A DNA stretch of 38,826 nucleotides from positions 1 through 38,826 of the forward strand of contig DDIP01000370.1 of NCBI GenBank assembly GCA_002338605.1, given 5' to 3'. This document shows, one piece after another, positions 4,573 through 8,227 of this stretch. The translations under genes were made by a program, and so were the position numbers. Below the pieces are notes generated by a model. It did no database searches. It was not told the DNA's origin and was given only the letters and a program-made list of their open reading frames with translations. How positions within the stretch are numbered: position 1 is the stretch's first letter; the number at the start of each line of letters is the position of its first letter. This DNA is from Proteobacteria bacterium UBA1847. Its GTDB lineage: Bacteria > Pseudomonadota > Gammaproteobacteria > Steroidobacterales > Woeseiaceae.

Positions 4573-5538
4573 ATGTTTGGAAAAAAAGAAAAGCCCAACA
4601 AACCGGAAAGCTTTATCAGTCGTTTGCGCGCGCGCCTGAATCGCGGCGATAGCTGGCTAAGCTACGACCTCGCAAACCTGGTACCGGGTGGTACGATCGA
4701 CGACGATGTACTCGATGAACTCGAGTCATTGCTGGTCATGGCTGACGTCGGCGTCGAAACAACGGCTCTGATCATTGACGATCTTAAGAATAGCCTCGCG
4801 CGCAAAGAGCTGAAGGACCTTGCCGCTTTACGCGCGGGCATTGAGCACGCTGTGCTGAAAATACTGGAGCCCGTGGAGCAGTCCCTGGTGATCGACAAGC
4901 CCGAGGGGCCGTTCGTCATTTTCATGGTCGGCGTCAATGGCGCTGGCAAGACCACCACGATCGGCAAGCTCGCACGACGTTTCAGGGAGCAGGGACACTC
5001 GGTGATGCTGGCGGCAGGTGACACGTTTCGTGCCGCCGCAGTTGAGCAATTGCAGGCCTGGGGTGAACGCAATGACGTGCCGGTGATCGCACAGCAGTCG
5101 GGCGCTGACCCCGCGGCAGTTATTTTCGACGCATGGCAGGCCGCCAGGGCACGCAATATCGACGTCCTGCTGGCTGATACGGCCGGACGCCTGCAAAGCC
5201 AGTCAGGGCTGATGGATGAACTGGCCAAAATGAAACGCGTCGTCTCGCGGCATGACGAGTCCGCGCCGCACGAAACGATGCTCGTTCTGGACGCGAGCCA
5301 GGGACAGAACGCCTTGATTCAGGCGGAAAAATTTAACGAGGTTCTGGGGATCACCGGAATCGTCGTGACAAAGTTGGACGGCAGCGCCAAGGGTGGCATT
5401 CTTCTGGCTATCGCGAATCGTCTTAAGGTACCGGTACGGTTTATTGGTATTGGCGAGGCGGTTGACGATTTGCAGCCATTTAACGCAAGAGAATTTGCGA
5501 CGGCATTACTTTCGTCCGGTGACAGGAACTCACCATAG
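4573..5538 (+). CDS. ftsY: Signal recognition particle receptor FtsY (short form)
   Basis: A 321-residue SRP receptor GTPase that docks ribosome-SRP complexes at the inner membrane. The N domain is followed by the G domain: P-loop GVNGAGKTTT (120-129), DTFRAAA, DTAGR, TKLDG and the C-terminal GIGE..DDLQPF motif. The long acidic A domain of enterobacterial FtsY is missing; only a short basic start (MFGKKEKPNK) precedes the NG core, which may serve as the membrane-binding helix. The stop is directly followed by the ftsE ATG, so ftsYEX form one unit. Confidence 0.96.
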   Translation: MFGKKEKPNKPESFISRLRARLNRGDSWLSYDLANLVPGGTIDDDVLDELESLLVMADVGVETTALIIDDLKNSLARKELKDLAALRAGIEHAVLKILEPVEQSLVIDKPEGPFVIFMVGVNGAGKTTTIGKLARRFREQGHSVMLAAGDTFRAAAVEQLQAWGERNDVPVIAQQSGADPAAVIFDAWQAARARNIDVLLADTAGRLQSQSGLMDELAKMKRVVSRHDESAPHETMLVLDASQGQNALIQAEKFNEVLGITGIVVTKLDGSAKGGILLAIANRLKVPVRFIGIGEAVDDLQPFNAREFATALLSSGDRNSP

Positions 5539-6219
5539 ATGATTCATCTCGATAACGTGACCAAGCGTTTTCCGGGTGGCCAGGAAGCCATTTCCGGACT
5601 CACAATGACGGTCGAACGAGGCGAAATGGTTTTCGTTACAGGTCACTCGGGCGCAGGCAAGAGCACCTTGCTGCGACTGATTGCACTCATCGATCGTCCA
5701 ACCAGCGGCCAGGTCATCGTTGATAATCAGAACACTCAGCGCGTCAAGCGCCGCAAGATACCTGCCTACCGACGACAGATCGGCATGGTGTTCCAGGATC
5801 ACAAATTGCTGTATGACCGTCCGGTTTTTGACAACGTTGCCTTGCCCCTGATTATCGCCGGCGTCAGTCATCGAGACGCCGGACGTCGGGTCCGGGCCGC
5901 GCTAGACCAGGTCGGACTACTGCACAAGGAAAAGCAGAGTCCGCAAACGCTTTCTGCAGGCGAACAGCAGCGTATCGGTATCGCGCGCGCGATTGTAACT
6001 CGTCCAAAACTTTTGATTGCCGATGAACCGACCGGCAACCTTGATCCCGACCTGTCGCTGGAAGTCATGCGCATATTTCGACGCTTCAACGAAGTGGGCG
6101 TCACGTTGCTGATCGCCAGCCATGACATCGCGCTGATCGACCGACTGGGTTGCCGGCGCATCGAACTCGAAGACGGCAGGCTCCAGGCAGAAAAGGACGA
6201 GGCTGAACTATGGCATTGA
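5539..6219 (+). CDS. ftsE: Cell division ATP-binding protein FtsE
   Basis: A 226-residue ABC ATPase that works with FtsX at the septum to drive amidase activation through periplasmic activators such as EnvC. Walker A GHSGAGKST (35-43), Q-loop VFQDHKLL, signature LSAGEQQRIGIARA, Walker B LLIADEPTGNLD and switch His (ASHD) are all intact. It starts with no gap after ftsY and its last codons overlap ftsX by 10 bases. Confidence 0.96.
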   Translation: MIHLDNVTKRFPGGQEAISGLTMTVERGEMVFVTGHSGAGKSTLLRLIALIDRPTSGQVIVDNQNTQRVKRRKIPAYRRQIGMVFQDHKLLYDRPVFDNVALPLIIAGVSHRDAGRRVRAALDQVGLLHKEKQSPQTLSAGEQQRIGIARAIVTRPKLLIADEPTGNLDPDLSLEVMRIFRRFNEVGVTLLIASHDIALIDRLGCRRIELEDGRLQAEKDEAELWH

Positions 6220-7175: not shown

Positions 7176-7195
7176 ATTGACATCAGTCCGCACCC

Positions 7196-7224
7196 TGTTA
7201 AGCTAACTATATGTTTTTTATAGT
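7196..7224 (+). promoter_or_regulatory. Possible promoter ahead of rpoH
   Basis: TATAGT (7219-7224) is a good -10 candidate, with a poor -35 (TGTTAA, 7196-7201) 17 bases upstream. A start near 7231 would place the CIRCE repeat in the 5' leader, the usual position of HrcA operators. A TTGACA (7177-7182) just after ftsX has no good -10 at 16-18 bases. The region is AT-rich, and which promoter is used cannot be settled by reading alone. Confidence 0.35.
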
Positions 7225-7261
7225 GATATAGAACATCCTGATCGGGAACCAATTGGATTTG

Positions 7262-7288
7262 TTAGCACTCTAATACCACGAGTGCTAA
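7262..7288 (+). promoter_or_regulatory. CIRCE element (HrcA operator) in the rpoH leader
   Basis: TTAGCACTC (7262-7270), a 9-base spacer, then GAGTGCTAA (7280-7288): a perfect match to the CIRCE consensus TTAGCACTC-N9-GAGTGCTAA, including the spacer length. HrcA binds this repeat and represses transcription until heat stress titrates it through GroEL. It lies 28 bases before the rpoH ATG and 15 before the ribosome site AAGGAGGG (7304-7311). In RNA it would also form a 9-bp hairpin just upstream of that site. Confidence 0.93.
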
Positions 7289-7316
7289 CATCGGCACCCA
7301 ATCAAGGAGGGAACAC

Positions 7317-8180
7317 ATGACAAGCCCGGTTCTTAAATCGAACTACGAACTTGCGCTCGCAGGCCCGGTCGGCAGTCTTGACGGTTACATCCAGGCTGTT
7401 GGCGGCATACCCGTTCTTAGCAAAACGGAAGAACAGCGATTGGCGCGCCGACTTCGTGACCACGAAGATCTTGAAGCAGCGCGTGAACTCGTCATGGCGC
7501 ACCTGCGCTTTGTGATTCATATTGCCAAGGGCTACACAGGCTATGGCCTGCCGCTGAGCGACCTGATCCAGGAAGGTAATGTTGGATTGATGAAGGCGGT
7601 CAAACGCTTTGATCCGGACTATGACGTTCGCCTGGTGTCGTTCGCCGTACACTGGATTCGTGCCGAGATTCACGAGTTTGTACTGAAGAACTGGCGCATC
7701 GTCAAAGTTGCCACGACCAAAGCACAGCGCAAGCTGTTCTTCAATCTTCGCAAGAACAAGAAGTCCCTGGCCTGGTTGTCCGACGCCGAAACGAAGGCTG
7801 TCGCCAAGGATCTTGGCGTGAAAGCTGCGGAGGTCACCGAAATGGAGAAGCGGCTGCACTCTCGGGACGCCGTTTTCGACCCGACACCGGACATCGATGA
7901 TGATCGAAACTTTACGCCCGCCGCCTATCTGCCGAGCCCGAACGCCGATCCCGCACTTCAGGTTGAAGCATCGGACTGGAACGACGACGCCTCTGATCGC
8001 TTGCACGAAGCACTGGAAGTGCTGGACGAGCGCAGCCGACGGATTCTCGACGTGCGCTGGCTTTCCGAGGACAAGATGACGCTGCACGAACTCGCCGACG
8101 AGTACGGCGTATCTGCAGAACGCATTCGGCAAATCGAGGTCAACGCGATCAAGAAACTACAGACGGCAATGGCCGCCTAG
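7317..8180 (+). CDS. rpoH: RNA polymerase heat-shock sigma factor RpoH (sigma-32)
   Basis: A 287-residue group 3-type sigma factor. Region 2 has LVMAHLRFVIHIAKGY, DLIQEGNVGLMKAVKRFDP and VRLVSFAVHWIRAEI; the RpoH-specific box QRKLFFNLR (137-145) identifies it as sigma-32 rather than RpoD or RpoS. Region 4 ends with TLHELADEYGVSAERIRQIE and KKLQ. It directs RNA polymerase to chaperone and protease genes under heat stress. Strong ribosome site AAGGAGGG 5 bases before ATG. The position after ftsX is conserved in gammaproteobacteria, but the CIRCE repeat in its leader adds predicted HrcA control. A strong terminator ends the unit. Confidence 0.97.
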   Translation: MTSPVLKSNYELALAGPVGSLDGYIQAVGGIPVLSKTEEQRLARRLRDHEDLEAARELVMAHLRFVIHIAKGYTGYGLPLSDLIQEGNVGLMKAVKRFDPDYDVRLVSFAVHWIRAEIHEFVLKNWRIVKVATTKAQRKLFFNLRKNKKSLAWLSDAETKAVAKDLGVKAAEVTEMEKRLHSRDAVFDPTPDIDDDRNFTPAAYLPSPNADPALQVEASDWNDDASDRLHEALEVLDERSRRILDVRWLSEDKMTLHELADEYGVSAERIRQIEVNAIKKLQTAMAA

Positions 8181-8200: not shown

Positions 8201-8227
8201 AAGGCCGCTCATTGAGCGGCCTTTTTT
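8201..8227 (+). terminator. Intrinsic terminator after rpoH
   Basis: AAGGCCGCTC (8201-8210) pairs with GAGCGGCCTT (8214-8223) across a 3-base loop, and a T-run (8222-8227) follows. The reverse strand lacks a T-run, so it acts mainly on the plus strand. Confidence 0.94.

What the first reader, a model, noticed from the sequence alone, without database searches (positions are those of the whole stretch)
7262..7288. Perfect CIRCE (HrcA operator) in the leader of rpoH
The leader of the sigma-32 gene contains TTAGCACTC-N9-GAGTGCTAA with no mismatch, 28 bases before the start codon. CIRCE is normally found before groESL, dnaK or hrcA. Here the HrcA repressor circuit would sit above the sigma-32 circuit: when GroEL is busy, HrcA is released and rpoH itself is transcribed. 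That would make a repressor-controlled sigma factor cascade, unlike E. coli, where rpoH is controlled mainly by an RNA thermometer and protein turnover. In RNA the repeat would also form a hairpin near the ribosome site, so it might act twice.
Basis: partly seen in the sequence, partly recalled or inferred. Interest (0 to 1): 0.78.

Follow-up and report, generated by a model that had tools for sequence, protein, structure and literature searches.

The report
HrcA switch on the rpoH promoter
The gene for the heat-shock master switch (sigma-32) carries, right over its likely promoters, a binding site for a repressor thought to sense whether the cell's protein-folding machine is busy; the same arrangement occurs in many related bacterial families and is mostly missing where the repressor gene is missing, so E. 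coli's wiring may be the exception.

Summary
In detail: a perfect CIRCE (7262-7288) ends 28 bases before rpoH. The genome has hrcA and one other CIRCE, before groES. CIRCE stands in the rpoH leader of 78 of 80 related loci. In a class-wide sample, each genome from a different family, 67 of 77 good-quality genomes with hrcA have it, against 2 of 27 without.

New here: the operator lies on promoter elements. GGAAC(TT)-N16/17-TCTAA, the form of E. coli's sigma-E promoter rpoH P3, has its -10 partly in the left arm; the right arm plus AT makes an extended -10 (TGC-TAAAAT). The nine groES sites read have neither. Across the class the sigma-E element goes with RpoE.

Best reading: sigma-E and probably sigma-70 transcribe rpoH only when HrcA is off, so chaperonin load gates the sigma-32 regulon.

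CIRCE before rpoH was predicted for Geobacter sulfurreducens in 2004, so the pairing is not new; I found the nesting and class-wide pattern nowhere in the held library. Against: two relatives keep CIRCE without a detected hrcA, three keep the sigma-E element without a detected RpoE, and no wider sigma-E regulon showed. No experiment was possible.

The parts
7262..7288 (+). CIRCE, HrcA operator (arms 7262-7270 and 7280-7288, spacer 9)
   Evidence: 0 mismatches, none in 100 shuffles; conserved in 78 of 80 related rpoH loci (two of the 78 with spacer 8 or 10)
7245..7251 (+). sigma-E type -35 element, here GGAACCA
   Evidence: GAAC starts 16 or 15 nt before CIRCE in 73 of 78 leaders, 0-1 of 78 at five control windows; 57 of 89 class leaders at these two offsets
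7269..7273 (+). sigma-E type -10 element TCTAA, sharing two bases with the CIRCE left arm; N17 from the -35
   Evidence: TCTAA in 52 of 78 leaders, TCCAA in 12; TAA follows the left arm in 0 of 9 groES CIRCE sites read
7262..7267 (+). possible sigma-70 -35 TTAGCA within the CIRCE left arm
   Evidence: part of the best-scoring TTGACA/TATAAT-like pair in 26 of the 27 leaders printed; inferred
7283..7291 (+). possible extended -10 TGC-TAACAT made of the CIRCE right arm plus CAT (TGC-TAAAAT in 55 of 78 leaders)
   Evidence: the closing AT is absent at 9 of 9 groES sites; function inferred, not reported by the consensus scan
7304..7310 (+). ribosome-binding site AAGGAGG
   Evidence: read from the sequence
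7317..8180 (+). rpoH (sigma-32), 287 aa
   Evidence: TIGR02392 399.9 bits
6210..7175 (+). ftsX, the gene before rpoH (ftsE 5539-6219 and ftsY 4573-5538 before it); ftsX-rpoH order as in E. coli
   Evidence: TIGR00439, TIGR02673, TIGR00064; E. coli region

Best explanation
The element is an HrcA operator laid over the promoters of rpoH. A sigma-E type promoter (GGAACCA 7245-7251, TCTAA 7269-7273) and probably a sigma-70 promoter with an extended -10 (TTAGCA 7262-7267, TGC-TAACAT 7283-7291) start transcription inside or just after CIRCE, so bound HrcA would block polymerase at both. HrcA needs GroEL to stay folded (established elsewhere). When misfolded protein occupies GroEL, HrcA falls off and rpoH is transcribed at the level that sigma-E and sigma-70 allow. 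Sigma-32 then drives groESL, whose leader has a sigma-32-like promoter followed directly by the other CIRCE; new GroEL refolds HrcA and closes both genes. Because no CIRCE was found before hrcA-grpE-dnaK here, this site would extend GroEL sensing to the whole sigma-32 regulon. Shown: the sequences, their conservation, and their statistical link to hrcA and rpoE. Inferred: binding, start sites and the direction of regulation.
For: CIRCE exact. hrcA present, 352 aa ORF, followed by grpE and the start of dnaK on the same contig (named by eye). 31 of 31 CIRCE loci read (2, 29) precede rpoH (22) or groES (9). rpoH leaders: 78 of 80. Class sample, genomes at least 90% complete and at most 5% contaminated: 67 of 77 with hrcA against 2 of 27 without, Fisher p 7e-14. 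Sigma-E type promoter in 60 of 89 CIRCE leaders, shuffled mean 0.2, maximum 3; 58 of 74 with RpoE over the cut-off against 2 of 15 without, p 3e-6. CTTGAA...CTAT, sigma-32-like, directly before CIRCE in 8 of 9 groES leaders, judged by eye. E. coli rpoH leader: TGAACTT-N16-TCTGA starting 121 nt before ATG, no CIRCE (best 8 mismatches). GroESL keeps HrcA folded in Caulobacter (PMC8119881, passage); RpoE -35 GGAACTT and the RpoE-dependent rpoH P3 (PMC8103513, passages).
Against: No experiment. hrcA was found in 54 of 60 relatives; among the six misses, G039 (100% complete) and G048 (92%) still have CIRCE at rpoH. The window's own MAG has no RpoE over the cut-off; 38 of 45 genomes of the relatives search have one at E 1e-40, and of the misses G004, G011 and G042 still carry GGAACTT before CIRCE. 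In six related genomes GGAACTT-N16/17-TCTNA is hardly commoner than its reversed control (14 against 11 matches), and 0 of 6 rpoE leaders have the element, so no wider sigma-E regulon is visible with this pattern. 10 of 77 good genomes with hrcA lack CIRCE at rpoH within 2 mismatches, 6 within 3. The RpoH tree gives only 2 supported independent contrasts. The sigma-70 promoter is a weak match that scan_promoters_terminators did not report.
Confidence: 0.72

Rival explanations
1. HrcA controls rpoH, but the GGAAC/TCTAA element is not a sigma-E promoter in this genus: it serves another ECF sigma factor, or the working promoter is the sigma-70 one alone.
For: G000 has 12 hits to the RpoE model, none over its cut-off; no clear excess of the sigma-E pattern in six relatives; G004, G011 and G042 have the element without a detected RpoE, and G041 and G048, without RpoE, keep CIRCE with a TGC-TAAAAT or TGC-TAATAT element only.
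Against: Association with RpoE across the class, the same kind of element between ftsX and rpoH in E. coli, and 46 of 60 spacers exactly 16.
Confidence: 0.17
2. CIRCE acts in the mRNA: the hairpin in the rpoH leader affects ribosome access or stability, alone or besides HrcA.
For: A transcript spanning CIRCE (7240-7340) folds well, -28.8 kcal/mol, z -3.2. At pairs 1 and 3, 28 of 37 one-sided changes in the 89 class sites leave a G-U pair.
Against: The stability is that of any perfect 9-bp repeat. Transcripts from the predicted starts lose the left arm: z -1.07 from 7280 and +0.63 from 7294. Only 3 compensatory Watson-Crick cells in 89 class sites and none in 76 order sites, and 11 of 76 have an unpaired C against C at pair 7. 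No Rfam family over its gathering score in the window.
Confidence: 0.08
3. The site is an evolutionary remnant with no present role.
For: None direct; 7 of 122 sampled genomes have it without a detected hrcA, five of them under 90% complete, and so do G039 and G048 in the order.
Against: Arms are almost invariant over many families while most of the spacer varies; it is mostly absent where hrcA is absent.
Confidence: 0.03

Closest known systems
HrcA/CIRCE control of groESL (Caulobacter; also Bacillus dnaK and groESL, recalled)
   Same: Same operator consensus, same repressor family, presumably the same GroEL-folding feedback (Caulobacter: PMC8119881, passage).
   Different: The target is the sigma-32 gene itself; the operator carries promoter elements that the nine groES sites read here lack.
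Predicted CIRCE before rpoH in Geobacter sulfurreducens (PMC545781, passages and Table 8)
   Same: Perfect CIRCE before rpoH and before groESL.
   Different: There also before hrcA-grpE-dnaK-dnaJ; given as position -51 for rpoH; listed for rpoH in one of the genomes of Table 8; no promoter overlap in the passages seen. Another phylum in present taxonomy (recalled).
E. coli rpoH P3, sigma-E dependent (PMC8103513, passages)
   Same: Same gene order (ftsX-rpoH) and same -35/-10 type, spacer 16.
   Different: E. coli is not among the control genomes with an hrcA match and has no CIRCE there (best 8 mismatches).
[quoted passage not shown]
   Same: By its title (seen in the reference list of PMC545781) it covers this very ground and may already list rpoH CIRCE sites.
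   Different: Not held; nothing of it seen, so priority cannot be judged.

Membership tests
HrcA/CIRCE regulon | Operator TTAGCACTC-N9-GAGTGCTAA near a transcription start | tested here: met
   0 mismatches; the start sites are only predicted
HrcA/CIRCE regulon | hrcA gene in the genome | tested here: met
   TIGR00331 E 2.8e-100, over cut-off; 352 aa ORF
HrcA/CIRCE regulon | Presence of the site goes with hrcA across genomes | tested here: met
   67 of 77 against 2 of 27; exceptions in the order G039 and G048
HrcA/CIRCE regulon | HrcA binds and represses | not testable with these tools
   needs EMSA or footprint and an hrcA mutant
sigma-E dependent rpoH promoter (E. coli P3 type) | GGAACTT, spacer about 16, TCTNA-like -10 | tested here: met
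   window GGAACCA-N17-TCTAA (two departures in the -35); class 60 of 89
sigma-E dependent rpoH promoter (E. coli P3 type) | rpoE in the same genome | tested here: inconclusive
   none over cut-off in the 83% complete G000; 38 of 45 genomes of the relatives search have it, including G015, whose RpoH is 92% identical
sigma-E dependent rpoH promoter (E. coli P3 type) | Element recurs at other places of the genomes of the genus | tested here: not met
   14 matches against 11 of the control in six genomes; 0 of 6 rpoE leaders
RNA hairpin or thermometer control | Structured leader with covarying pairs | tested here: inconclusive
   no notable structure from the predicted starts, few compensatory changes but many G-U tolerated ones, no Rfam match; the starts are inferred

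The most novel reading that the evidence does not exclude
HrcA gating of a sigma-E/sigma-70 promoter cluster was the ancestral wiring of rpoH in Gammaproteobacteria; lineages without hrcA (E. coli, and family f175, whose leaders keep the sigma-E element and a TGCTA-like remnant) kept the naked promoter and had to control sigma-32 otherwise, for instance at the level of RNA and protein turnover.
Probability: 0.55. Interest if true: 0.7.

Novelty: new variant of a known kind. Interest (0 to 1): 0.52.

Why it matters
Textbook heat-shock control of sigma-32 comes from E. coli, which lacks HrcA. If most gammaproteobacterial families with hrcA put rpoH under a chaperonin-sensing repressor, then HrcA there is not a local groESL regulator but stands at the top of the sigma-32 regulon, and joins envelope stress (sigma-E) and chaperonin load at one promoter. 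It offers a testable account of why E. coli leans on translation and turnover: the transcriptional brake may have gone with hrcA.

Tried and rejected
RNA hairpin: not supported by folds from the predicted starts; the arm changes cut both ways. A sigma-70 promoter further upstream: no consistent TTGACA/TATAAT pair; conserved blocks near the ftsX end (ACATAAT; TAAATAACTGTTTTTATAA-like) remain unexplained, and the window lacks the exact form of the first. Tree test of independent co-loss: RpoH alone resolves too little; 2 independent pairs on supported branches, CIRCE going the same way as hrcA in 1.7 of 2 on average and never the other way on average, no significance possible. One search had G119 translated on the wrong strand; it was corrected and rerun, and the figures are not used. 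Search for a sigma-E regulon in six relatives: 14 matches against 11 in the control; the 14 loci were not read. Of the 14 same-class loci, only 4 have CIRCE; of the other 10, five (G066, G197, G220, G310, G330) are not among the hrcA-positive genomes and five were not tested for hrcA.

Literature: ten searches; among the passages I opened, only PMC545781 puts CIRCE before rpoH. Passages only were seen of PMC545781, PMC8119881, PMC8103513, PMC4890791, PMC2215328, PMC3224663, PMC10696704 and PMC3135505. The other listed papers were seen as listings.

Rows dropped: the tree used 91 RpoH rows of 122 genomes plus G047, chosen from what had been fetched, without the partial proteins of G091 and G117 and without paralogues. 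One search counted a leader only if CIRCE had at most 3 mismatches at spacer 9. In one search RpoE hits under the cut-off (10 genomes) counted as absent. Confidence in the best explanation was lowered from 0.80 to 0.72 on rechecking, because of G039 and G048 (CIRCE without a detected hrcA) and G004, G011 and G042 (sigma-E element without a detected RpoE).

Full report
1. The observation. The sequence at 7262-7288 is TTAGCACTC-TAATACCAC-GAGTGCTAA, a perfect CIRCE; no other site with up to 3 mismatches is in the window and none appeared in 100 shuffles. Its end is 28 bases before the ATG at 7317 of an intact rpoH, downstream of ftsY-ftsE-ftsX. The genome (G000, 467 contigs, 83% complete) belongs, by the named records nearest in RpoH, to Woeseiaceae, Gammaproteobacteria.

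2. Is there an HrcA system? hrcA is present over the curated cut-off, 352 aa, followed on its contig by grpE and the start of dnaK (named by eye). The only other CIRCE found in the genome has one mismatch and lies 66 bases before groES. Of seven hrcA leaders read, one has a clear CIRCE (G042, 1 mismatch), G037 has a 4-mismatch remnant, and five, that of G000 included, have none. So the visible HrcA regulon here is groESL plus rpoH. Missing contigs could hide more, but most relatives of 98-100% completeness also show two sites.

3. Conservation near and far. Of 60 genomes of the order (37 of the genus, G000 included), 59 have CIRCE within 2 mismatches and 54 have hrcA. The 31 CIRCE loci that I read precede rpoH (22) or groES (9), 31 of 31. 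Two genomes have CIRCE at rpoH but no detected hrcA: G039 (100% complete) and G048 (92%). G047 has neither a detected hrcA nor RpoE, and its rpoH leader has neither element; it carries CTTGAAA-N13-CCCCAATTA, sigma-32-like, instead. Of 80 rpoH loci from named records, 76 have CIRCE within 3 mismatches at spacer 9, two more have intact arms at spacer 8 or 10 (L062, L088), and two (L110 Aliiglaciecola, L111 Alteromonas) have none.

For the class I took the rpoH hits of 122 genomes (134 searched, each of a different family by the tool's codes), read 125 leaders, and crossed them with hrcA (201 of 274 genomes). By genome, within 2 mismatches: hrcA present 77 of 87, absent 7 of 35; among genomes at least 90% complete and at most 5% contaminated, 67 of 77 and 2 of 27 (p 7e-14). 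One set of mononucleotide-shuffled leaders never scored better than 5.5. The two good-quality exceptions without hrcA are G186 and G075; other genomes of their families (G300, G224) have hrcA, so recent loss or assembly gaps are possible. Six hrcA genomes lack CIRCE even at 3 mismatches. Outside the class 0 of 15 leaders had it. A draw over the phylum, richer in complete genomes, gave CIRCE in 4 of 14 same-class loci; five of the ten misses are not among the hrcA-positive genomes, five were not tested.

4. What the operator lies on. Aligned on CIRCE, the 78 leaders show two constant features besides the arms. (a) GAAC begins 16 or 15 bases before CIRCE in 73 of 78, against 0-1 of 78 in five control windows, and the left arm is mostly followed by TAA, giving TCTAA in 52 and TCCAA in 12. 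This is GGAACTT-N16/17-TCTAA, the form of a sigma-E promoter; the -35 box GGAACTT and the sigma-E dependent rpoH P3 of E. coli are in PMC8103513 (passages). I checked E. coli MG1655: TGAACTT-N16-TCTGA starts 121 bases before rpoH, again after ftsX, with no CIRCE (best 8 mismatches). In the class, 60 of 89 CIRCE leaders have such a promoter within 60 nt (shuffled mean 0.2, maximum 3), 48 with the -10 at the same place in the operator and nine upstream of it. It goes with RpoE over the cut-off: 58 of 74 against 2 of 15 (p 3e-6), one of the two being the window, whose genome lacks a detected RpoE. (b) The right arm is followed by AAT or similar, making TGC-TAAAAT (55 of 78), an extended -10, with TTAGCA of the left arm 18 bases upstream; it is the best-scoring sigma-70-like pair in 26 of the 27 leaders printed. 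The nine groES sites have neither addition; eight of them have CTTGAA...CTAT, sigma-32-like, immediately upstream (by eye). The composite GGAACN{10,13}TTAGCACTC occurs in 57 of 274 class genomes, against 11 for the reversed control (my count of the table); 28 of the 30 loci read, of 59 places, are rpoH leaders.

5. Mechanism. Both predicted starts (about 7279-7281 and 7297-7299) lie under or just beyond CIRCE, where bound HrcA would block polymerase. HrcA is kept folded by GroESL (Caulobacter, PMC8119881, passage). Hence: rpoH on = (sigma-E or sigma-70) and not HrcA; groESL on = sigma-32 and not HrcA. A busy chaperonin releases both, and recovered chaperonin closes both. dnaK, with no CIRCE found here, would feel the chaperonin only through sigma-32. 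Binding, start sites and direction are inference.

6. RNA. A transcript containing all of CIRCE folds strongly (z -3.2), but those from the predicted starts do not (z -1.07 and +0.63). Compensatory changes are rare: 3 cells among 89 class sites, 0 among 76. But at pairs 1 and 3 of the class sites 28 of 37 one-sided changes leave a G-U pair, so these counts alone do not rule out an RNA role.

7. Against the reading. In six related genomes the strict sigma-E pattern is hardly commoner than its control (14 against 11), 0 of 6 rpoE leaders have it, and G004, G011 and G042 have GGAACTT before CIRCE without a detected RpoE. Sigma-E specificity in this genus therefore rests on the class-wide association. 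Single-gene tree contrasts are too few (2 supported pairs).

8. Known or new. CIRCE before rpoH was predicted in Geobacter sulfurreducens (PMC545781). Permina and Gelfand 2003, by its title about these classes, was not held. In ten searches of the held library (listed under Tried and rejected) I found no statement of the promoter nesting, the class-wide pattern or the co-loss. I therefore call it a new variant of a known kind, with the reservation about priority.

Noticed in passing
G000:C12:5002-5808 (L270 1401-2375): Second rpoH-like gene, 52.5% identical to the window's, no CIRCE, CTTGAAAA...CCATAT, sigma-32-like, upstream, and a DegP-like protease ORF before it (named by eye). G015:C25 has a 68% identical copy with a CTTGAAA motif. 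A foreign contig is not excluded.
   Followed up: partly
window 7177-7235: Between ftsX and the promoter, relatives share an ATTnnACATAAT motif and a TAAATAACTGTTTTTATAA-like block; role unknown, the window's copy of the first is altered.
   Followed up: partly
L370, L371, L367 (G376, G380, G220, family f175): rpoH leaders keep GGAACTT-N15-17-TCnnA and CAGTGCTA, CAGTGCTA and CAATGTTA where the CIRCE right arm would be: a possible fossil CIRCE. G220 is not among the hrcA-positive genomes; G376 and G380 were not tested.
   Followed up: partly
G047:C14 (L292): Genome of the order without detected hrcA or RpoE; its rpoH leader carries CTTGAAA-N13-CCCCAATTA instead, suggesting sigma-32 autocontrol.
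   Followed up: partly
L230 (G069): AGAGTGCTAAAATT, like a CIRCE right arm, lies directly upstream of the full CIRCE in the rpoH leader, perhaps two operators in tandem.
   Followed up: no
hrcA leaders, e.g. L125 (G037), L116 (G000): TTGACACTC...GATTGCTAG (4 mismatches to CIRCE) in G037, and a similar TTGACCCAC...CATTGCTAG in G000: hrcA autoregulation may have decayed into a plain promoter.
   Followed up: no
window 8203-8227: Rho-independent terminator-like GGCCGCTCATTGAGCGGCCTTTTTT after rpoH, not listed by the scan.
   Followed up: no
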